Both the position numbers and the translations under genes were made by a program. From Flavobacteriaceae bacterium (lineage in GTDB: Bacteria > Bacteroidota > Bacteroidia > Flavobacteriales > Flavobacteriaceae): a stretch of DNA of 54,168 bases. The stretch lies in contig JAFMCA010000012.1 in assembly GCA_017858055.1 (NCBI GenBank), forward strand, positions 1-54,168, written 5' to 3'. Positions 18,921 through 54,168 of this stretch are shown piece by piece (the first letter of the stretch is position 1; every line of letters starts with the position of its first letter). The notes under the pieces are model-generated. The model had not been told where the DNA came from, did no database searches, and worked only from the letters and a program-made list of their open reading frames with translations.

Positions 18921-20036
18921 ATGATTTGGAAAGACGTCGTCGGTCAGGAGCAGACAAAAAAGCATTTAGAATATCTTATTTCATCTAGTCAAGTTCCTCA
19001 TGCTCAGATTTTTACTTCACAATCTGGTTATGGGAATTTGCCCTTAGCCATATCCTTTTCTTTAGCACTTCTCGGCAAAGAAGTTGATCCCAAAGCAGAC
19101 GAACTTTTAGGTAAAGCTTCTCAAAATCCCGATTTACATTTTTTATATCCTGTCGTAAAAAGAGGGTCTGAAACGGTAGCCTATTCCAGTGATTATGCCA
19201 AGGAATGGTTTTCGTTTTTAGATCAACATCCCTACGGGGATTATACCGATTGGTTTGATTACATTGAAGTTGGAAATAAACAAGGGGTAATTGGCGTTCC
19301 GGAAATTGAAAAATTACATCATACCCTTTATCTTAAGGCTTTTGGCGGAGGGAATAAGGTCTGTATTCTCTGGGGTCTTGAAAAATTAAATGCTGCCGGG
19401 TCGAATGCCTTTTTAAAACTCTTAGAGGAGCCTCCAAAAAACACCTTTTTTATTTTGTTGTGTGAGTCAAACGAAAGCATTTTGCCTACTGTTTTATCCC
19501 GTTGTCAAGAAATAAATTTAGGACCTATTGAAGAAGAGGCTCTGATTAAACAAATACCCGATACGCATCCCAATAAAAAACAAATGCTCGTTCAAGCAAA
19601 TGGAAGTTTAAGAAAACTTAAGAAACTTCTATCGTCCGATGAAAATAGAGAATATGAAACACTTCTTGTTGAAGGGTTACGTTATGCCTTTAAGGCAAAG
19701 GGAAATCAAAAGATCGTCATCGATTTAATGCGTTGGGCGAATGAACTTGCTGTTTTAGGGAGAGAAAAGCAAAAGGCCTTTTTGAGTTTTGGAATTCAAA
19801 TGTTAAGAGATGCCTTTCTAACAAATTACCACTCAATTTCTCTAGTTCATTATCAATCTGACATTGATTTTGATATTAAGAAACTTGCTCCATTTGTGCA
19901 TACTACAAATGTGGTTTCATTAATCGAATTATTTGAAGAACATCATTACTACATTCAGCGAAATGCAAACGCTAAGATGCTTTTTGCTGAAATGGCACTT
20001 CAGCTCACCCGGCTGATTAATACCCCTGCGGCCTAA
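18921..20036 (+). CDS. holB: DNA polymerase III clamp-loader subunit delta'
   Basis: This 371-residue AAA+ clamp-loader protein starts IWKDVVGQEQTKKHLEYLI, typical of delta'. The Walker A region is degenerate (SQSGYGNLPLAI, near residue 34), as expected for a subunit that does not bind ATP. The sensor/arginine-finger region appears as LLEEPPKNTFFILLCESNE...LPTVLSRCQ (about 165-195), with the SRC motif kept. Zinc-binding cysteines of E. coli delta' are not evident. It ends in a 4-nt overlap with the convergent methyltransferase gene. Confidence 0.88.
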   Translation: MIWKDVVGQEQTKKHLEYLISSSQVPHAQIFTSQSGYGNLPLAISFSLALLGKEVDPKADELLGKASQNPDLHFLYPVVKRGSETVAYSSDYAKEWFSFLDQHPYGDYTDWFDYIEVGNKQGVIGVPEIEKLHHTLYLKAFGGGNKVCILWGLEKLNAAGSNAFLKLLEEPPKNTFFILLCESNESILPTVLSRCQEINLGPIEEEALIKQIPDTHPNKKQMLVQANGSLRKLKKLLSSDENREYETLLVEGLRYAFKAKGNQKIVIDLMRWANELAVLGREKQKAFLSFGIQMLRDAFLTNYHSISLVHYQSDIDFDIKKLAPFVHTTNVVSLIELFEEHHYYIQRNANAKMLFAEMALQLTRLINTPAA

Positions 20037-20875
20037 CTTTTCTTTTTAAAAATAAAAATATTGGAGGAATAATCTTTTGTGCTAAAAGCAGCGAAATTAG
20101 AGAGCAATCCGATTCCCAATCCCCGTATCAAGGGAAAAGAATTTCCTTGATATTTTTCGGATAAATAAGAAATATAAAAAGCATCAAACCAAAGTGGCTT
20201 TTGGACAACTTGAGTAAAACCAAAAGTTTCAAGGAGCTGTTTCAAGCCCATAGGGGTGAAGTGCCACAAGTGTCTAGGTACATCAAGGGCAGCCCAATGC
20301 TCAGCATAATAGGTCGCATCATAACTGTGGAAATTAGGCACTGCTACGACCAGTAAGCCATTGCTATTCAGCAACTTATGAAGTTTTTGAAGTGTGCTCT
20401 CTAGATCGGGAATGTGTTCTAAAGCATGCCAAAGGCTTATCGTAGAATACTGAATTCCATTGGGTATATCCTCTACACTTAAATACGAATTGATTCCCTT
20501 TGAGGTACAGCTCTGTTTTGCGGTTGGGTTCGGTTCTACAACACTTGTATTAAAACCATATTTAGAAAGGTTATTTGCAAATTCGCCTATCCCACCTCCT
20601 ACATCAAGAAGAGTTCTTCCTAGGCTGTATTTTTGAATAAGTTTTCTTTTGTATGTAAACATTATTCCTTGAACCAAAGAATACAAAAACCCTGTAATAC
20701 CCTCTCTTTTAGTTTGATGAGAAGTATACTGGTCTTTAGGATAGTATTGGTCAAGGTTAAGCCCTAAAGGGAACACCGTCTTGGCAAATCCTTGTTTAGC
20801 ATCCCATTGGATTGTAAATGATTGTCCTGAAACAAGATGGTCTTTGGCTTTAAAATGTTGTCGCTTATTGTTCAT
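20033..20875 (-). CDS. Class I SAM-dependent methyltransferase
   Basis: This 280-residue Rossmann methyltransferase has SAM motif I LLDVGGGIGEFANNL (about residues 89-103), the acidic residue of motif II in SVVEPN near 112, and HALEHIPD near 152. The first 80 residues look like a substrate-binding or zinc-less version of the N-terminal region seen in sugar/small-molecule methyltransferases. Substrate is unknown. A perfect parS palindrome sits 3 nt before its start codon, where a ribosome-binding site would be, so ParB could affect its expression. Confidence 0.82.
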   Translation of the reverse strand: MNNKRQHFKAKDHLVSGQSFTIQWDAKQGFAKTVFPLGLNLDQYYPKDQYTSHQTKREGITGFLYSLVQGIMFTYKRKLIQKYSLGRTLLDVGGGIGEFANNLSKYGFNTSVVEPNPTAKQSCTSKGINSYLSVEDIPNGIQYSTISLWHALEHIPDLESTLQKLHKLLNSNGLLVVAVPNFHSYDATYYAEHWAALDVPRHLWHFTPMGLKQLLETFGFTQVVQKPLWFDAFYISYLSEKYQGNSFPLIRGLGIGLLSNFAAFSTKDYSSNIFIFKKKS

Positions 20876-20878
20876 AGA

Positions 20879-20894
20879 TGTTTCACGTGAAACA
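20879..20894. promoter_or_regulatory. parS site (ParB/Spo0J-binding palindrome), perfect
   Basis: TGTTTCACGTGAAACA is a perfect 16-bp palindrome and the canonical chromosomal parS sequence conserved across bacterial phyla. It fills most of the 26-bp gap between the mnmG stop (20902) and the methyltransferase ATG (20875). parS sites load ParB clamps and cluster near replication origins. parA and parB are not in the window. Confidence 0.92.
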
Positions 20895-20901
20895 ATTCCA
20901 T

Positions 20902-22773
20902 TTAGCGCCCCATGGAAACTAAAAGTACGCTAATATCACTCGGGTTAATTCCACTTATTCTTGACGCTTGACCTAAAGTTGAGGGTTGTAATTTATTAAG
21001 TTTTTCCTTCGCTTCATAAGATAGGGAGGCAAGGGAATCATAATCAAAAGACAGGGGTATTTTAATGTTTTCTAGACGTTTTAACTTGTCCGCGTTCTTC
21101 CTTTCTTTATCGATATATCCTGCATATTTGATTTCTATTTCGGCTTGCTCAAATACTTCATCTTCTATCCCTTGATCCTCCATAAAAATAGAAATCGCTT
21201 CAAATTGGTATAAATCCTGTCTGTTTATATTGGGTCTAGACAAAAGTTTAGAAAATTTATCTGTTTGTGAAACGATCACATCGTTTTTCATTTCCAGCAG
21301 TTGATTTGCTCTATTCAAATCGTAACTGGTTTTCTTTAAATGCTCAACGGTAGCACTACTAAGACGCTGTTTACGCTCTACACGGTCCAACCGCTCTTTG
21401 GAAACTAAGCCCAATTGAAAAGCTTTGGGGGTTAGCCTTTGGTCCGCATTGTCTTGGCGTAATAGGGTACGGTACTCGGCTCTTGAAGTAAACATACGAT
21501 AAGGCTCTTCTGTGCCTTTTAAAATGAGGTCGTCAATTAAAACTCCAATATAAGCCTCTTCTCTGCCCAAAACGAAAGGAGTTTCATCAACACATTTTTG
21601 GTGTGCGTTGATTCCCGCTATGATCCCCTGAGCTGCAGCTTCCTCATAGCCTGTGGTACCATTAATTTGACCTGCAAAAAATAAATTCTGTATTTGCTTC
21701 GTCTCCAGGCTATGAAACAATTGAGTGGGTTGAAAATAATCGTATTCAATCGCATAACCCGGTCTAAAAAATTTGACGTTCTCAAATCCACGAACCTGTT
21801 TTAAGGCTTTATATTGAATGTCATCTGGGAGGGACGTTGAGAATCCATTTACATAAACCTCTACGGTATTCCACCCTTCTGGCTCTACAAAAATTTGATG
21901 CTGAGATTTGTCGCTAAAGCGATTGATCTTGTCTTCGATTGAAGGACAATACCGCGGCCCGGTGCTTTTTATCGAGCCATTAAACATAGGAGAGCGATCA
22001 AAACCTGTGCGCAATAGATCATGTACCTCAAGATTGGTATGGGTAATGTAGCAGCTGATCTGCTTTGTCAATGGTTGTGTATGATCGGTATAGGAAAATT
22101 TTTGTGGGTTTTCGTCCCCAGGTTGTTCAAGCATTTTAGAATAATCAAGAGAACGACCGTCAACCCTTGGAGGAGTTCCTGTTTTCATTCTTCCTGATGA
22201 AAATCCCAAATTCTCCAAAGCAGCAGTTAGTCCATAGGATGCCTTTTCGCCCGCTCTTCCTCCGCCAAAGTTTTTCTCTCCAATATGTATAAGCCCGTTC
22301 AGAAATGTTCCGTTAGTCAAAATAACTGTCTTGCTGTATATTTTTAATCCCAAAGAGGTAATTACCCCTAGAACTTGTTCGTTTTGAACGATAAGATCCA
22401 CAACTGTATCTTGATAAAAATCAAGGTTTGGTGTGTTTTCTAGGAGCGCTCTCCATTCAAGCGTAAAAAGACTTCGATCTGACTGAACTCTTGGACTCCA
22501 CATTGCTGGACCTTTCGACTGATTCAACATTTTAAATTGGATCGCGCTTCGATCTGAAACAATTCCTGAGTATCCCCCCAAGGCATCAATTTCTCTAACA
22601 ATTTGTCCTTTAGCTATTCCACCCATAGCTGGATTGCATGACATTTGTGCGACGTTTTGGAGGTTCATGGTTATCAAAAGGGTGTGCGACCCTAGGTTTG
22701 CTGCAGCTGCTGCTGCCTCACAACCCGCGTGTCCAGCACCTACTACAATTACGTCAAATTTTGAATCAAACAT
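20902..22773 (-). CDS. mnmG: tRNA uridine 5-carboxymethylaminomethyl modification enzyme MnmG
   Basis: MnmG (GidA), with MnmE, installs the cmnm5 group on the wobble uridine of several tRNAs, using FAD and folate. The 623 residues start with the FAD dinucleotide fold VVGAGHAGCEAAAAAANLG (about 10-28), followed by MSCNPAMGGIAKG (about 44-56), GTFLNGLIHIG (about 155-165), and the C-terminal helical domain ending RISGINPSDISVLLV. Length is normal. It overlaps the ybeY stop by 8 nt and is flanked on both sides by parS sites. Confidence 0.97.
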   Translation of the reverse strand: MFDSKFDVIVVGAGHAGCEAAAAAANLGSHTLLITMNLQNVAQMSCNPAMGGIAKGQIVREIDALGGYSGIVSDRSAIQFKMLNQSKGPAMWSPRVQSDRSLFTLEWRALLENTPNLDFYQDTVVDLIVQNEQVLGVITSLGLKIYSKTVILTNGTFLNGLIHIGEKNFGGGRAGEKASYGLTAALENLGFSSGRMKTGTPPRVDGRSLDYSKMLEQPGDENPQKFSYTDHTQPLTKQISCYITHTNLEVHDLLRTGFDRSPMFNGSIKSTGPRYCPSIEDKINRFSDKSQHQIFVEPEGWNTVEVYVNGFSTSLPDDIQYKALKQVRGFENVKFFRPGYAIEYDYFQPTQLFHSLETKQIQNLFFAGQINGTTGYEEAAAQGIIAGINAHQKCVDETPFVLGREEAYIGVLIDDLILKGTEEPYRMFTSRAEYRTLLRQDNADQRLTPKAFQLGLVSKERLDRVERKQRLSSATVEHLKKTSYDLNRANQLLEMKNDVIVSQTDKFSKLLSRPNINRQDLYQFEAISIFMEDQGIEDEVFEQAEIEIKYAGYIDKERKNADKLKRLENIKIPLSFDYDSLASLSYEAKEKLNKLQPSTLGQASRISGINPSDISVLLVSMGR

Positions 22774-23191
22774 GTTTTTTTTGTTTCACGTGGAACAAAT
22801 GTATAAACTTATCTTCAAGCTGCCTCATTATGGTTTTTTTGTCTTTGGTATCGTCTTTATAGCCCATACAATGTAAAACTCCATGAATTAAGACTCTAAG
22901 GGTCTCATTTTCAATTGTTTGTGATTCGTCTTCTGCTGACAGGGCTACAGCCCACATAGAAACAAAAAATTCTGCTTTAAGCGATTGTCCTGAACTGTAG
23001 TCAAAGCTAATGATGTCGGTGTGGGTGTTATGCTTCAAATAATTTTGATTGATTTCAAGCATTTTCTCTTGAGATACAAAATTATAGTGTAAGGTATCTA
23101 TAGAAAATCCATAGGACAACACAAATTCTTCAAGGAGTGAAGAAATTTCCTCTTTGTCTAAAAATTCGGGTATGTGTTGAAAATGTATAAT
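22766..23191 (-). CDS. ybeY: Endoribonuclease YbeY (16S rRNA maturation)
   Basis: YbeY is a zinc RNase for 16S rRNA 3' maturation and ribosome quality control. The motif HGVLHCMGYKDD (near residue 107) supplies two His ligands; the third His of HxxxHxxGYxH is Asp here, as in other Bacteroidota. No ATG, GTG or TTG lies in frame between the promoter element at 23206-23213 and the conserved region. By homology the protein should begin (M)IHFQHIPEF, implying an ATT start at 23191. The upstream ORF extension (to 23350) runs antisense through gltX and is not credible. The last codons encode a parS site. Confidence 0.85.
   Translation of the reverse strand: MIHFQHIPEFLDKEEISSLLEEFVLSYGFSIDTLHYNFVSQEKMLEINQNYLKHNTHTDIISFDYSSGQSLKAEFFVSMWAVALSAEDESQTIENETLRVLIHGVLHCMGYKDDTKDKKTIMRQLEDKFIHLFHVKQKKHV
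22782..22797. promoter_or_regulatory. parS site inside the 3' end of ybeY
   Basis: TGTTTCACGTGGAACA fits the degenerate parS consensus TGTTNCACGTGNAACA, with the CACGTG core and both half-site ends intact. On the minus strand it encodes the YbeY tail residues LFHVKQ and lies 8 bp upstream of the mnmG start. It is 1.9 kb from the perfect site at 20879. Confidence 0.88.
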
Positions 23192-28607: not shown

Positions 28608-30764
28608 TTAATTTAATGGAACAAAATCTAAAAAGCGTTTTATAACATTAACCTTTTTCACTTTAATTTTTATTTCGTCCCCAAGTTGGTATATTTTTTT
28701 GGTTCGTTCACCTACCAATGCATGACGATCCATATCATATTGAAAGTAATCACCCTTAATATCCATTACACGGATCATTCCTTCACATTTATTTTCTACA
28801 ATTTCAACATATATCCCTCGATCTGTTACGCCGGAGATTACTCCGTCGTATTCTTGTCCTACTTTATCTTCCATAAATACCATTTGCATATGTTTTATAG
28901 AATCTCTTTCAGCTTTAGTCGCTAATTGTTCTCTTTGTGAACTGTGTTCACAGGCTTCCTCAAGCGTACTTTCTTTTGCGCTAGATTCTCCATCGAGATA
29001 CATCTGCAAAAGCCGATGTACGAGTACATCCGGATACCGTCGAATCGGTGAAGTGAAATGGGTATAATGAGAAAACGCCAAACCATAATGACCTATGTTT
29101 TGTGTAGTATAAACCGCTTTGGACATACACCTCAGCGTAAGTGTATCGATTAAATTTTGCTCTTTGGTTCCATGACAGGCTAATAATAAGCCATTAATTT
29201 CTTTACTAATATTTTTTTCAGAAAGATTAAATGTATAACCAAACGAACGAACCGTTTGTTTTAAATTATTTAGTTTTTCTTCATCTGGGTCGTCATGAAT
29301 ACGATAGACAAAAGCTTGTTTATTCTTTTTATTTCCAATGAATGCTGCAACCTTACGATTAGCTAATAGCATAAACTCTTCGATGAGTTTATTCGCGTCT
29401 TTAGAACTCTTAAAAAAAACGGACTCCGGTTTGTTTTCTTCATCGAGTGAAAAACTTACTTCTACACGGTCAAAAGAAATTGCTCCTTTTTTCATCCTGT
29501 CTTCTCGCAAGTTTTTTGCGATGCTATTGAGACTTTGAATTGCATTAAAAACATGTTCGGGAACAGTGTATTCTGTGCCTGTTAATGAATGTTTTGCCTC
29601 TACTATTGGTTTTTCTTGTTCAATCATACACTGAACCTCTTCATAAGCAAAACGGTAATCCGAATAGATCACGGTTTTCCCATACCATTCTTCATAAACT
29701 TTTCCCTTCTCATCAATAGTAAATACTGCTGAAAAAGTAAGCTTTTCTTCCTGAGGCCTTAAAGAACATAAATCGTTTGATAAAACCTCCGGCAACATAG
29801 GCACAACACGATCAACTAGATAAACTGAGGTTGCTCTTTCATAAGCTTCTTGATCCAAAAGTGTATTTGGACGAACGTAATGAGATACGTCTGCGATATG
29901 AATCCCAACTTCATAACGGTTGTTGGATATTTTTTTAAATGATAATGCATCATCAAAATCTTTTGCCGTCTTTGGATCTATAGTAAAAGTTAGAGTCTTC
30001 CTAAAATCCTTGCGGTTTTTAATTTCTTCTGGGCTAATTTTTACGTCAAATGAGGCCGCTTCTTCTAATACCTCTGAAGGAAATTCATAGGGTAAACCGT
30101 ATTCGTGGAGAATACTGTGTAACTCGGTTTCTATCTCTCCTGGTTTTCCTAAACTTTTAACGATTTTAGCGTGTGGCGTATCTTTTCTTTCTTTCCATTC
30201 TTTAAAGACAATAACTACTTTTTCTCCATCTCTGAAATCTTTTAATTCTTCTTTTTCAATAAAAAAATCTGTGTAGGCTTTACTACTTTTACAAACAACA
30301 AAACCAAATTCCTTTTGTCTTTCTAATACGCCAACATACTCTTTTGTGGAACGTTCTACAATTGAAACGACCTCAGCTTCGATGCCTTTCTCTTTTCTAT
30401 TGATACTTATTTCTACCAGATCACCATCTAAAGCTTTGTTTAATGCCTTTTTGGATATGACAAGTTCCTCATTAAAGTCATCCACAGAGACCACACCTTT
30501 TCCTGAAGGGATAATTGTAAGACGAGCACGTTTAGTGGGAATGGCTTCTTTATTAAATTGATATTGACCTCTTTGCTTGGCTTTTAGGATCTTCTTACTG
30601 TGAAGTTGATTCAAAATTCGAATGATGTCGTTTCTTCCTTTGGTATCGCGAACATCCAGTTTTGAAGCAATTTGTTTATAATTTAGGACAGCTGTTCCAC
30701 TACTCCTAAAAAGAGAACGAATTTTTGATTCTAATTTTTTTGAATCCCTTTTTTTATTGGACAT
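28608..30764 (-). CDS. rnr: Ribonuclease R
   Basis: This 3'-5' exoribonuclease degrades structured RNA. The 718 residues contain an N-terminal winged helix (about 1-70), cold-shock domains (about 75-220), the RNB catalytic domain with DPKTAKDFDDALS (near 262) supplying the clustered metal-binding aspartates, and a C-terminal S1 domain (from EYDGVISGVTDRGIYVEI). The protein ends shortly after S1 with no long basic tail. A clear -7 element is 15 nt upstream. Confidence 0.96.
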   Translation of the reverse strand: MSNKKRDSKKLESKIRSLFRSSGTAVLNYKQIASKLDVRDTKGRNDIIRILNQLHSKKILKAKQRGQYQFNKEAIPTKRARLTIIPSGKGVVSVDDFNEELVISKKALNKALDGDLVEISINRKEKGIEAEVVSIVERSTKEYVGVLERQKEFGFVVCKSSKAYTDFFIEKEELKDFRDGEKVVIVFKEWKERKDTPHAKIVKSLGKPGEIETELHSILHEYGLPYEFPSEVLEEAASFDVKISPEEIKNRKDFRKTLTFTIDPKTAKDFDDALSFKKISNNRYEVGIHIADVSHYVRPNTLLDQEAYERATSVYLVDRVVPMLPEVLSNDLCSLRPQEEKLTFSAVFTIDEKGKVYEEWYGKTVIYSDYRFAYEEVQCMIEQEKPIVEAKHSLTGTEYTVPEHVFNAIQSLNSIAKNLREDRMKKGAISFDRVEVSFSLDEENKPESVFFKSSKDANKLIEEFMLLANRKVAAFIGNKKNKQAFVYRIHDDPDEEKLNNLKQTVRSFGYTFNLSEKNISKEINGLLLACHGTKEQNLIDTLTLRCMSKAVYTTQNIGHYGLAFSHYTHFTSPIRRYPDVLVHRLLQMYLDGESSAKESTLEEACEHSSQREQLATKAERDSIKHMQMVFMEDKVGQEYDGVISGVTDRGIYVEIVENKCEGMIRVMDIKGDYFQYDMDRHALVGERTKKIYQLGDEIKIKVKKVNVIKRFLDFVPLN

Positions 30765-30779
30765 AGTCGAAACTTCTTA

Positions 30780-30787
30780 CAAAGGTA
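30780..30787 (-). promoter_or_regulatory. -7 promoter element of rnr
   Basis: The minus strand reads TACCTTTG, a perfect TAnnTTTG, 15 nt before the rnr ATG. Confidence 0.68.
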
Positions 30788-31268
30788 CAATTTTCGTTTT
30801 CGTCAACATATTAACATTATAAACATATTTCATTATTACTTTTTTTATTTAATTTAAAATTGGATGATATATATGGCTTGTTAATATTGTATATAGTTTT
30901 TTAAATATTTGTTTTGACCTTATCCAAATAGAAAAGTATTGACCAATTATTTACTGCTATTAACAATTCAAACCCATTGAAATGAGTCAGATAGATAATT
31001 TTTAAGCAACTGTTTATAACGCCTTTTGTAAATATTTTTACATTTTATTTTCTTTGTTTTTATTTAATAAACATTCTTTTTTTGTGCATTTGTAACTTAT
31101 AAAAAAGGGTAAAAAAAGAACTTTTTTATTCACTTTTTTTGAATGCAAAACAGCATTAATATGAGCAAGTTTTTTTATTGTTTTTTGTAAACAAAAATTG
31201 AATAAAGTAATTCACAGACAATGAACAGGAAATAAAAGGATTCTTATTTTTAGGAAAAATATAATAAA
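30788..31268. other. Long AT-rich intergenic region, candidate replication origin
   Basis: This is the longest gene-free stretch of the window. It is strikingly AT-rich and lies between divergent rnr and rpiB. No ORF, tRNA or terminator is evident. Near-matches to the DnaA box TTATNCACA occur at 30817-30825 (TTATAAACA), 30920-30928 (TTATCCAAA), 31011-31019 (reverse, TGTTTATAA), 31126-31134 (TTATTCACT) and 31208-31216 (TAATTCACA), each with one mismatch. None is perfect, and chance matches are expected in such AT-rich DNA. The parS sites 8-10 kb away make an origin plausible. Confidence 0.3.
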
Positions 31269-31700
31269 ATGAAAATTAGTATTGGTAATGATCACGCGGG
31301 TCCTTCTTATAAAGACGCTATTGTAGAATTTTTGCACTCAAAAGGACACGAGGTAACGAATTACGGAACGGATACACAGGATAGTGTGGACTATGCGGAT
31401 TTCATTCACCCCGTTGCGACTGATGTAAGCAATACTAAGGCAGACTTTGGTATTATCATTTGCGGTAGTGGCAATGGCGCTGCAATGACGGCCAACAAAC
31501 ATCAAAAAATTAGAGCCGCTCTCTGTTGGAATGTAGAGATTGTAGAATTGGCACGTTCCCATAACGATGCGAATATTCTGAGCATTCCCGCTCGTTTTGT
31601 TTCTATTCCTCAAGCAATTCAGATGGTAGACGCATTTATAAATACTGAATTTGAAGGAGGGCGTCATCAAGGGAGAATAAAAAAAATACCCTGTAGCTAA
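31269..31700 (+). CDS. rpiB: Ribose-5-phosphate isomerase B
   Basis: RpiB interconverts ribose 5-phosphate and ribulose 5-phosphate. The 143 residues show MKISIGNDHAGPSYK, with the substrate-binding DHAG motif, and GIIICGSGNGAAMTANK with catalytic Cys65, followed by ALCWNVEIVELARSHNDANILSIPAR. Family length is normal. The stop overlaps the acetyltransferase ATG by one base (TAATG), so the two are coupled. Confidence 0.94.
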   Translation: MKISIGNDHAGPSYKDAIVEFLHSKGHEVTNYGTDTQDSVDYADFIHPVATDVSNTKADFGIIICGSGNGAAMTANKHQKIRAALCWNVEIVELARSHNDANILSIPARFVSIPQAIQMVDAFINTEFEGGRHQGRIKKIPCS

Positions 31701-32523: not shown

Positions 32524-34357
32524 AGTAGTTATTCGACTTGTCAATATCTGCCATTAATCCACTTGGGTCAATAAGTATGGTTTCAATATCCTCCTTTTTT
32601 TGTTTTAAGATCAGCTCGTATTTGGGGTTGGCCCAAGCCCAATCTTTTTCAACGGTCCAATCCATGGAGTAGGGATTTTCTTTTTCTCCTCGCATAAGGG
32701 AGATTGGAATATAATGCAAATCAGTATCCCCATTTTTTGACACCACAAGAATTTCAAGAGGCATTGGCATCAATTCTTTGCGTTCTAATCGAAGCAGACT
32801 TCCTTCCTCATGAGAATCGAGAGCTGCAATAGCATAATCGATTTTATTTGTGGTTTGCGTCCAATCTGTCAGATACCATTGCAATTGAATACCCGAAATA
32901 CGCTCTGCGATACGCCGAAAATCATTTGGCTGAGGGTGTTTGAATTTCCATTCCTCATAATAGGTTTGTAAAATTTTAAAAAAGGTTTCTTTTCCCACGA
33001 GATAAATCAGTTGGCCTAAAAACACAGCCCCTTTATTATAAGCAGTGCTTTCATAGGCAAAATTGTGTTCATAGCGGTTTGCGTTTGTACTTTGTGGCAT
33101 TTCAACTCCAGAGGTAGCTAATCTAAAATAGCCAGCGTATGATCCCTCAAGTGGAAATTCCTTATTTTGTTCCAGCACTTCATTTGATGCTAAAGCAGAG
33201 ATAAACGAAGTAAAGCCCTCATCCATCCATTCGTGTTTTGTTTCATTTGTTGCAAGTACGTGTTGAAACCAAGAATGCGCTAATTCATGTGCTGTAACCC
33301 CGAATAAGGAACCGTAATTTCTTCCTCCCGTGATGAGCGTAAGCATGGCATATTCCATGCCTCCATCACCACCTTGAACAACACTGTATTGCTTATAAGG
33401 ATACAAACCCAGGGTGGTATTGTAGTAGTCCATTAATTTGGCCGTATCGGGTTGTAATTTTTTCCAATTTTCAATGATTTCAGGATTGTTTTTGTAAAAA
33501 AAATGGAGGGTAACCTCATTGGGACCCGGGTAGGTGTCATGAATATAATCGGTGTCTGCAGCCCATGTAAAATCATGAACTTGAGGAGCGATAAAATGCC
33601 ATGTTACATTCCCTTTTTTAGTTTTTGGGTTCTTTCTTTCGGAGTAGCCCTTTCCAATATCATCTGCATTTTGTAAGTAGCCACTAGCTGCAACGGTAAA
33701 GTCTTTATCTAAAGTAATCTTTACATCAAAATCTCCCCACACCCCATGAAATTCCCTTCCTGTATAGGGGTCAGTATTCCAACCTTCGAGATCGTATTCG
33801 GCTAATTTAGGATACCACTGAGCCATAGAGAAGGCGATTCCCTCAGAAGAGTTTTTCCCCGCTCTTCGAATTACATCAGGCACTTGCCCATTAAAAGAAA
33901 GCTCTAGGACCGTACTTTGTCCTGGACCCAAAGGCGTATTTAGTGTAACTTCTAGTATGGTTTCAGCATCAACAGTTTTAACAGCCATTCCGTCTTGTGT
34001 AAGTCCAGAAACCTTTAAAAACCCTTGTTGAGCCGGAGAAAGCGTGTCTAAATCTACAGAAAACCGCCGATTTTTATCCCCTGCATTTTTTAAACGAACC
34101 GCCATTTCACTTCCAGGTTTAAAAGCGTTGAAGTACAAATGATAAAACACCTTATGTAGCGTTTCTGGGGAGTTGTTGGTATAAACCAGTTTTTGATTTC
34201 CGCTATATTGTGCGGTTTCATGTTCTAAGGTCACTTCCATTGAATATTCAACATGTTGTTGCCAATATTGCGCATTAGCATTGCAAAAAAATAAGAAAGT
34301 TAGTAGGGAGAAAAAAATGGATTTCACAAGTTGTTTTTTTATATAATTAATGACCAA
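32504..34357 (-). CDS. M1 family zinc metallopeptidase (aminopeptidase-like)
   Basis: This gluzincin-type peptidase is exported by an N-terminal signal peptide (about residues 10-29, ending CNANAQ). The 617 residues carry the zinc motif HELAH (His357, Glu358, His361) with the third ligand Glu380 in HEWMDEGF, exactly 18 residues on. The exopeptidase substrate motif is GGMEYAM (332-338), a variant of GAMEN. It should cleave peptides in the periplasm or at the surface. It overlaps MBL upstream by 11 nt and rnpA downstream by 20 nt. Confidence 0.92.
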   Translation of the reverse strand: MVINYIKKQLVKSIFFSLLTFLFFCNANAQYWQQHVEYSMEVTLEHETAQYSGNQKLVYTNNSPETLHKVFYHLYFNAFKPGSEMAVRLKNAGDKNRRFSVDLDTLSPAQQGFLKVSGLTQDGMAVKTVDAETILEVTLNTPLGPGQSTVLELSFNGQVPDVIRRAGKNSSEGIAFSMAQWYPKLAEYDLEGWNTDPYTGREFHGVWGDFDVKITLDKDFTVAASGYLQNADDIGKGYSERKNPKTKKGNVTWHFIAPQVHDFTWAADTDYIHDTYPGPNEVTLHFFYKNNPEIIENWKKLQPDTAKLMDYYNTTLGLYPYKQYSVVQGGDGGMEYAMLTLITGGRNYGSLFGVTAHELAHSWFQHVLATNETKHEWMDEGFTSFISALASNEVLEQNKEFPLEGSYAGYFRLATSGVEMPQSTNANRYEHNFAYESTAYNKGAVFLGQLIYLVGKETFFKILQTYYEEWKFKHPQPNDFRRIAERISGIQLQWYLTDWTQTTNKIDYAIAALDSHEEGSLLRLERKELMPMPLEILVVSKNGDTDLHYIPISLMRGEKENPYSMDWTVEKDWAWANPKYELILKQKKEDIETILIDPSGLMADIDKSNNYYVAPAE

Positions 34358-53277: not shown

Positions 53278-54168
53278 TTAATCAGGACAAGTTCCCCATT
53301 CAGGCTTTGGCAAACTCCAAGCATTTGCTCCAATCTTAAATAAAGTTGGTTCAGCACTAAAGTTAGTTACACACCATCCTGAAAGGTCTTGGTTAAATGT
53401 AGTTGCATTATAAAACATACGACCCATACCAAGGTCAAAGTTATTGGAGTCAGTAAAACTTTCCACACTTGAAGTATCCCATCCCCCAATATCCTGATTA
53501 AATGCAATTGCGCCATCAAACATCCAACCCATTATCCTAACATTTGAAGTATCCCAACTACCAATATCTTGATTAAATGCAATTGCTTCTCTAAACATAT
53601 TAGTAAACTCACCGACATTTGATGTATCCCAATTGCCTATATCTTGATTAAAAGCAGAAGCTCCAGAAAACAGACCATTCATATTAACCACATTTGAAGT
53701 ATCCCAGTTCCCGACATCTTGATTAAAAGCAGAAGCTCCAGAAAACATAAAAGCCATATTAGTCACATTTGAAGTATCCCAGTTTCCAATATCTTGATTA
53801 AACGTAATAGCCGAATTAAACATAGCAAGCATATCTTCCACATTTGAAGTATCCCAGTTCCCGATATCTTTATTAAATGATGAGGCTTGTCTAAACATCT
53901 CGAACATACTTGTAACACTTGAAGTATCCCAGTTTCCAATATCTTGATTAAATGCAATTGCATCTCTAAACATAGCAGTAAACTCAACCACATTTGAAGT
54001 ATCCCAGTTCCCGACATCTTGATTAAAAGCAGAAGCTCCAGAAAACATATCAACCATATTAGTCACACTTGAAGTATCCCAAAAACCTATTGCTGAATTA
54101 AAAGAAGTTTTGGCATAAAATAATTGGGACATATTCGTTACTAATGAAGTGCATAGATTGACATTACC
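53278..54168 (-). CDS. BspA-like leucine-rich (DUF285) repeat surface protein, 5' end beyond the window
   Basis: The reading frame stays open through the right edge (the upstream codons read NLCTSLVTN), so the gene is cut by the window and the apparent start at 54132 is not real. At least eight 25-residue units of the pattern [25 protein letters not shown] can be read, and a ninth is 10 residues longer (its [13 protein letters not shown] insert). The C-terminal end SGWCVTN...PEWGTCPD is the usual DUF285 cap. Such proteins are surface-exposed adhesins or mediators of self-recognition. The repeats are near-identical at DNA level (75 bp per unit). Confidence 0.9.

What the first reader, a model, noticed from the sequence alone, without database searches (positions are those of the whole stretch)
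20879..22797. Two parS sites bracket mnmG; region is origin-proximal
A perfect TGTTTCACGTGAAACA (20879-20894) and a near-identical TGTTTCACGTGGAACA (22782-22797) lie 1.9 kb apart on either side of mnmG, 3 nt before the methyltransferase ATG and within the ybeY 3' end. parS clusters near origins in most phyla that have ParABS, which predicts ParB loading here and fast segregation of this region. One site is coding (LFHVKQ of YbeY), so selection on DNA binding shapes a protein tail.
Basis: partly seen in the sequence, partly recalled or inferred. Interest (0 to 1): 0.8.

Follow-up and report, generated by a model that had tools for sequence, protein, structure and literature searches.

The report
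Twin centromere sites flanking mnmG
Two copies of the bacterial centromere sequence flank the gene mnmG close to the probable replication origin, one of them doubling as the last codons of the neighbouring gene, and the same arrangement recurs widely in this order of bacteria.

Summary
Confirmed and extended. The two parS palindromes are exactly where stated and are the only exact matches in the 2.0-Mb genome: none at 1 mismatch, 7 at 2, 0.008 expected. The genome has canonical parA and parB. The bracket is conserved: 74 of 81 mnmG loci carry sites (up to 2 mismatches) on both flanks; in 37 genomes with both positions printed, 65 of 67 sites lie within 1.5 kb of mnmG. mnmG is near the GC-skew minimum in 5 of 6 sampled chromosomes; the sixth has no usable skew. 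Fine maps of two put the minimum in the rnr/rpiB gap; its window homologue, 30765-31268, 8 kb from parS, is the likely oriC. The coding claim holds: in 39 YbeY tails His is always CAC and Val always GTG, while the free parS position switches Glu to Lys. New: dnaA (n=37) and parB (n=17) lie at least 0.17 of a chromosome from mnmG, and no SMC or ScpA was found. A known kind (ParABS) in an unusual layout. ParB binding is inferred, not shown.

The parts
20879..20894 (.). parS site 1, TGTTTCACGTGAAACA, between mnmG (3' side) and the methyltransferase ATG
   Evidence: exact match; one of two exact sites in the genome; downstream-flank site in 76 of 81 mnmG loci at up to 2 mismatches
22782..22797 (.). 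parS site 2, TGTTTCACGTGGAACA, inside the 3' end of ybeY, 8 nt upstream of the mnmG start; encodes LFHVKQ
   Evidence: exact match; upstream-flank site in 77 of 81 loci at up to 2 mismatches; codon test
20902..22773 (-). mnmG (gidA), the gene bracketed by the two sites
   Evidence: Pfam GIDA 1.8e-163; NCBIfam TIGR00136
22766..23200 (-). ybeY, whose last codons contain parS site 2 (start codon not assigned; ORF open to 23350)
   Evidence: Pfam YbeY 7.2e-20; ORF
20033..20875 (-). SAM-dependent methyltransferase, starts 3 nt beyond parS site 1
   Evidence: Pfam Methyltransf_23 3.9e-25; ORF
30765..31268 (.). putative oriC: rnr/rpiB divergent gap, 504 bp, AT 0.79, three TATTAACA motifs (30809, 30879, 30958)
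   Evidence: homologous gap holds the local cumulative-skew minimum in G098 and G155; most AT-rich 500 bp of the window, next to the window's shallow cumulative-skew minimum at 30503; motif enrichment
28608..30764 (-). rnr (ribonuclease R family), left border of the putative oriC
   Evidence: ORF; synteny by tblastn; gene name recalled from the sequence, no family search run
31269..31700 (+). rpiB, right border of the putative oriC
   Evidence: ORF; synteny by tblastn; gene name recalled from the sequence, no family search run

Best explanation
The two palindromes are the chromosomal centromere (parS) of a Flavobacteriales ParABS system. ParB (encoded elsewhere, contig C16) would load on both sites and spread over mnmG and its neighbours, and ParA would move this complex so that the origin region segregates first. 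The replication origin is most likely the AT-rich rnr/rpiB gap, 8 kb to the right. Site 2 is held in place by selection on the DNA although it lies in ybeY, so it dictates the YbeY C-terminus. Shown here: the sites, their uniqueness, parA and parB, conservation at mnmG, the codon signature, the skew minimum near mnmG in relatives. Inferred: ParB binding, segregation role, exact oriC.
For: Exact consensus and uniqueness. ParB with ParB_N, HTH_ParB and ParB_C domains and a ParA ATPase; ParB aligns over 197 residues to a solved ParB family protein. Order-wide: 196 of 294 genomes have the exact site, reversed control in 1 of 294; the 14-bp core is in 39 of the other 53 parB-positive genomes, with control matches in 7 of 53, so 235 of 249 have one or the other; the 45 genomes without parB (by subtraction all of one family, f14, 300-600 kb) have no exact site. 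Sites stick to mnmG: 65 of 67 in 37 genomes, the window's own included; 183 sites at up to 1 mismatch in 381 kb near mnmG against 9 in 1,184 kb elsewhere in the same 80 loci. Skew. Codons.
Against: No binding data. The window genome is fragmented, so its own global skew was not computed, and the skew minimum inside the window is shallow. One relative (G205) gave no coherent skew, and in G155 the coarse minimum is 7% of the chromosome from mnmG although the fine map of 220 kb places the local minimum about 18 kb away. 14 of 249 parB-positive genomes (11 of them family f9) have neither the exact site nor the core. In families f17 and f21 of the phylum, 6 of 6 fetched parS loci have no mnmG within the 1.5 kb held on each side. 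The joint absence of parB and parS is in a single family of reduced genomes, so possibly one event.
Confidence: 0.93

Rival explanations
1. The palindromes are operators or RNA hairpins that regulate the ybeY-mnmG-methyltransferase genes, unrelated to ParB.
For: Site 2 sits just before the mnmG start and site 1 just before the methyltransferase start; the transcribed strand of site 1 folds better than most shuffles, z -2.2.
Against: Site 2 RNA folds no better than shuffles, z +1.3, and neither site is among the terminator-like stems found. In relatives sites are in ybeY coding sequence, intergenic, or in arrays (ten upstream copies at up to 1 mismatch in L034), which fits a centromere better than one operator. 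The sequence is the parS consensus used in print (PMC10197239, passages).
Confidence: 0.04
2. The sites are parS, but the window's own chromosome is arranged otherwise and this region is not near its origin.
For: Own assembly has 67 contigs; six chromosomes were skew-mapped and one was uninformative; gene order beyond the mnmG-rpiB block differs between the window, G098 and G155.
Against: The block mnmG-ybeY-gltX-SPFH-glnS-folB-DUF2807-rnr-rpiB is collinear in the window, G098 and G155; the window has the same AT-rich, motif-bearing gap and a change of skew sign across it (left -0.034, right +0.009).
Confidence: 0.06
3. The YbeY tail FHVEQ is conserved for protein function and the parS match there is a by-product.
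For: The same residues recur in 39 of 42 in-gene sites, all in one frame.
Against: 38 of 77 YbeY tails lack FHxx in the last 14 residues; 35 of those 38 have no in-gene site and 3 have it in another frame, where the tail reads SRET or PRET. His is CAC in 39 of 39 (background 222 of 714) and Val is GTG in 37 of 37, the other 2 being Met (background 444 of 2810), while the residue at the free parS position is Glu in 34 and Lys in 5. Loci are related, so these are not independent events.
Confidence: 0.02

Closest known systems
Chromosomal ParABS (Bacillus subtilis Spo0J/Soj, Caulobacter ParAB, Pseudomonas ParAB)
   Same: parS consensus, three-domain ParB, ParA ATPase, few sites clustered near the origin
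   Different: parB is 0.171-0.491 of the chromosome away from mnmG in 17 single-contig relatives, whereas the model systems keep par genes near the origin (recalled); no SMC or ScpA found
Bacteroides caecimuris and Muribaculum intestinale in the OMM12 Hi-C study (PMC10197239; 12 passages and section 20)
   Same: there parS clusters were used with skew to mark origins, the origin did not always coincide with dnaA across the 12 species, and no known condensin was found in these two
   Different: other organisms; the passages and section I read do not mention mnmG, ybeY or coding parS
parS inside spo0J of B. subtilis (recalled, not from a call)
   Same: a parS site inside a coding sequence
   Different: here the host gene is ybeY, the site forms its C-terminal codons, and it is in the gene in some genera and outside it in others

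Membership tests
Chromosomal ParABS | parS palindrome matching TGTTNCACGTGNAACA | tested here: met
   two exact sites
Chromosomal ParABS | ParB with N-terminal, HTH and dimerisation domains | tested here: met
   PF02195, PF17762, PF23552 above cut-off
Chromosomal ParABS | ParA-type ATPase beside parB | tested here: met
   L003 2152-2916, AAA_31 7.1e-70
Chromosomal ParABS | parS near the replication origin | tested here: met
   in relatives: 5 of 6 sampled chromosomes, sixth inconclusive; own genome not globally tested
Chromosomal ParABS | par genes near origin and parS (common in model systems, recalled; not a requirement) | tested here: not met
   parB-mnmG 0.171-0.491 of chromosome in 17 relatives; own parB on another contig
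Chromosomal ParABS | ParB binds the sites in vivo and they act in segregation | not testable with these tools
   needs ChIP-seq and imaging
ParB-loaded SMC-ScpAB | SMC and ScpA encoded | tested here: not met
   no SMC over cut-off in 7 of 7 genomes; no ScpA in 17 of 17; MukBEF and MksBEF not searched
Bacterial oriC (gap 30765-31268) | AT-rich, at the skew minimum | tested here: met
   two relatives fine-mapped; window minimum shallow
Bacterial oriC (gap 30765-31268) | canonical DnaA boxes TTATNCACA | tested here: not met
   none in the window; 2 in 12 homologous gaps against 1.07 expected; TATTAACA is enriched instead
Bacterial oriC (gap 30765-31268) | replication starts there | not testable with these tools
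   needs marker-frequency or two-dimensional gel data

The most novel reading that the evidence does not exclude
Across Flavobacteriales the centromere is anchored to mnmG beside an origin that has lost its link to dnaA and to parAB, uses a divergent DnaA box (TTATTAACA-like) in the rnr/rpiB gap, and segregates by ParABS without SMC-ScpAB; in many genera the DNA site has been built into, and dictates, the C-terminus of the RNase YbeY.
Probability: 0.5. Interest if true: 0.75.

Novelty: new variant of a known kind. Interest (0 to 1): 0.58.

Why it matters
It gives a simple, testable centromere and origin marker for Flavobacteriales, where dnaA misleads: in G098, G012 and G044 dnaA is 0.022-0.067 of a chromosome from the skew maximum. 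It points to chromosomes that have ParABS but no detected SMC-ScpAB. The YbeY tail is a clear natural case of a DNA site overriding protein sequence.

Tried and rejected
Chance: rejected. RNA hairpin or terminator: not supported. Canonical DnaA boxes: none in the window. Averaging GC skew over 59 full-length mnmG loci told little beyond a positive skew at mnmG itself, probably gene-strand bias. The motif TATTAACA was picked from 9-mers shared by eight of the same gaps, so its enrichment is after the fact, 10 of the 13 clusters are in gaps already used, two more (L059, L081) lie upstream of rnr or rpiB and one (L071) elsewhere. In the tandem rpiB-rnr loci (8 of the 19 found) it is weak: 0-3 copies within 1.5 kb upstream of rpiB.

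Correction made on checking: read past the ybeY stop in seven loci where the alignment overran it (L026, L030, L037, L045, L051, L054, L063). One search repeats both counts with the first in-frame stop: in-gene sites 42, not 43; FHxx tails 39 of 77, not 37 of 76. The flank counts do not depend on this.

Literature: nine searches. In the listings shown (titles and starts of abstracts, at most 20 per search; searches had more papers than were listed; one search found none) I saw no paper on parS bracketing mnmG or on parS coding in YbeY. Opened: PMC10197239 (12 passages and section 20) and PMC7333895 (5 passages). The library is open-access only, and the 2007 parS survey that I recall is not held. 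So novelty in print is not established.

Full report
Observation. Both palindromes are present at the stated coordinates with no mismatch to TGTTNCACGTGNAACA. In the whole assembly (2,003,103 bp, 67 contigs, 95.9% complete) these are the only exact matches; there are none with one mismatch and seven with two; the reversed control gives none exact and one at up to two. Base composition predicts 0.0079 exact sites. Site 1 lies between mnmG and a methyltransferase start; site 2 lies in the end of ybeY, just before the mnmG start (domains).

The machinery. The genome has one ParB match (contig C16, E 3.4e-51), next to a ParA. ParB has ParB_N, HTH_ParB and ParB_C domains, ParA an AAA_31 domain, and ParB aligns with solved ParB and Spo0J proteins. 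No SMC match passes the cut-off in 7 of 7 genomes, where only weak partial matches occur; 10 of 14 control genomes pass it. ScpA is absent in 17 of 17 and found in 9 of 14 controls. The window genome was in both sets. MukBEF and MksBEF were not searched. This agrees with a Hi-C study that found no known condensin in two Bacteroidetes (PMC10197239, section 20).

Conservation. Among 294 genomes of the order (at least 95% complete was asked), 196 have one to five exact sites and 1 has a reversed-control match; 249 have parB. Of the 53 with parB but no exact site, 39 carry the core GTTNCACGTGNAAC; the reversed control matches in 7 of 53, so a few core matches may be chance. The remaining 14 include 11 of family f9. 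The 45 genomes without parB are, by subtraction (25 of them were not listed), the 45 of family f14, and none has an exact site; this may be a single loss, and those genomes are small. For the 37 genomes, the window's own included, in which the printed (truncated) lists gave both site and mnmG positions, 65 of 67 sites lie within 1.5 kb of mnmG: both flanks in 13, 5' only in 20, 3' only in 4; the two far sites are both in G208 (exact or core sites, so single flanks may hide variant sites). In 81 loci (the window and the 80 nearest MnmG loci), sites with up to two mismatches are upstream in 77, downstream in 76, on both sides in 74, on neither in 2. At up to one mismatch, 183 sites fall in 381,213 bp near mnmG and 9 in 1,183,511 bp elsewhere in the 80 loci. 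In a phylum sample 223 of 296 genomes have exact sites, control in 4 of 296. Of 30 loci of 3 kb fetched there, the 11 of families f16 and f20 and the 13 of the window's family have mnmG in them; the 6 of f17 and f21 do not.

Origin. In 37 single-contig relatives with a dnaA match (38 searched), dnaA lies 0.189-0.495 of the chromosome from mnmG; parB lies 0.171-0.491 away in the 17 with both positions printed (sizes rounded to 0.1 Mb except four). GC skew was sampled at 20 places of 20 kb in six chromosomes. In five the skew minimum is 0.002-0.071 of the chromosome from mnmG and dnaA is 0.271-0.485 from that minimum; shuffling the samples reached the observed range in 0 to 15 of 2000 trials. 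In the sixth, G205, the skew has no coherent shape (1453 of 2000; nominal minimum 0.180 from mnmG) and nothing can be said. Fine maps of 200 and 220 kb put the local minimum at 1,535,221 in G098 and 1,148,328 in G155, both in the gap between divergent rnr and rpiB, about 18 kb from mnmG or parS. In the window this gap is 30765-31268; it is the most AT-rich 500 bp of the window and adjoins the shallow cumulative-skew minimum at 30503 (-405; -370 at 34000, -357 at 22000). The 8-mer TATTAACA occurs 45 times in 12 of 12 homologous divergent gaps against 3.26 in dinucleotide shuffles (maximum 10 in 100 shuffles), while canonical DnaA boxes are not enriched. The motif was chosen from these same gaps. 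Clusters of three or more within 600 bp occur in 13 of 181 loci, against 1 to 6 for six scrambled motifs. I propose it as a divergent DnaA box; that is inference. In 8 tandem-arranged loci the motif is weak.

The coding site. With corrected stop codons, 42 upstream sites lie fully inside ybeY; 39 are in one frame, encoding [M/L]FH[V/M][E/K]x, nearly always at the very C-terminus (28 of 42 sites start exactly 19 nt before the end of the stop codon), and 3 are in another frame; 72 further upstream sites are intergenic and 1 could not be assigned (replacing). Of 77 readable YbeY tails, 39 have FHxx in the last 14 residues. In these His is CAC in 39 of 39 (mnmG background in the same loci 222 of 714), Val is GTG in 37 of 37 with 2 Met (background 444 of 2810), while the residue at the free parS position is Glu in 34 and Lys in 5. 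Silent change is absent and a charge-reversing change is tolerated: the DNA, rather than the protein, appears to be under selection. Of the 38 tails without FHxx, 35 have no in-gene site. Loci share ancestry, so the counts are not independent.

Mechanism. ParB nucleates on parS and spreads to neighbouring DNA, and ParA moves the complex so that this locus segregates first (established for ParABS; review PMC7333895, five passages seen; sliding as a CTP clamp is recalled). Whether the pair also affects ybeY-mnmG or methyltransferase expression is open.

Verdict. The origin claim is supported through relatives and local features. The unexpected part is the layout: centromere near the origin, initiator and partition genes elsewhere, no SMC-ScpAB detected.

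Noticed in passing
G000 and 16 relatives: No SMC over the family cut-off in 7 of 7 genomes and no ScpA in 17 of 17, although all but G024 of these have parB.
   Followed up: partly
window 30765-31268; L005, L006, L009, L040, L042, L047, L052, L057, L069, L130, L135: TATTAACA (TTATTAACA-like) is strongly enriched in the rnr/rpiB gap and may be the DnaA box of these bacteria.
   Followed up: partly
L023, L071, L034: parS-like sites with CACATG instead of CACGTG in a Kordia and others, in L034 within a series at 116-118 bp spacing; possible shift of ParB specificity.
   Followed up: no
family f9 (11 genomes, e.g. G009, G021): parB present but neither exact parS nor core; a diverged centromere is likely.
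   Followed up: no
G044, G073, G116: A third core parS site lies inside the mnmG coding region in G044 and G073; G116 has sites at the same spacing but its mnmG was not located.
   Followed up: no
L031, L034, L035: parS arrays of six or more copies upstream of mnmG in Flavobacterium loci.
   Followed up: no
L192-L195, L200, L201 (families f17, f21): No mnmG within 1.5 kb of parS; the centromere seems to sit elsewhere in these lineages.
   Followed up: no
window 53278-54132: ORF of near-identical WDTSNV-type repeats (BspA/DUF285-like, name recalled) at the contig end.
   Followed up: no
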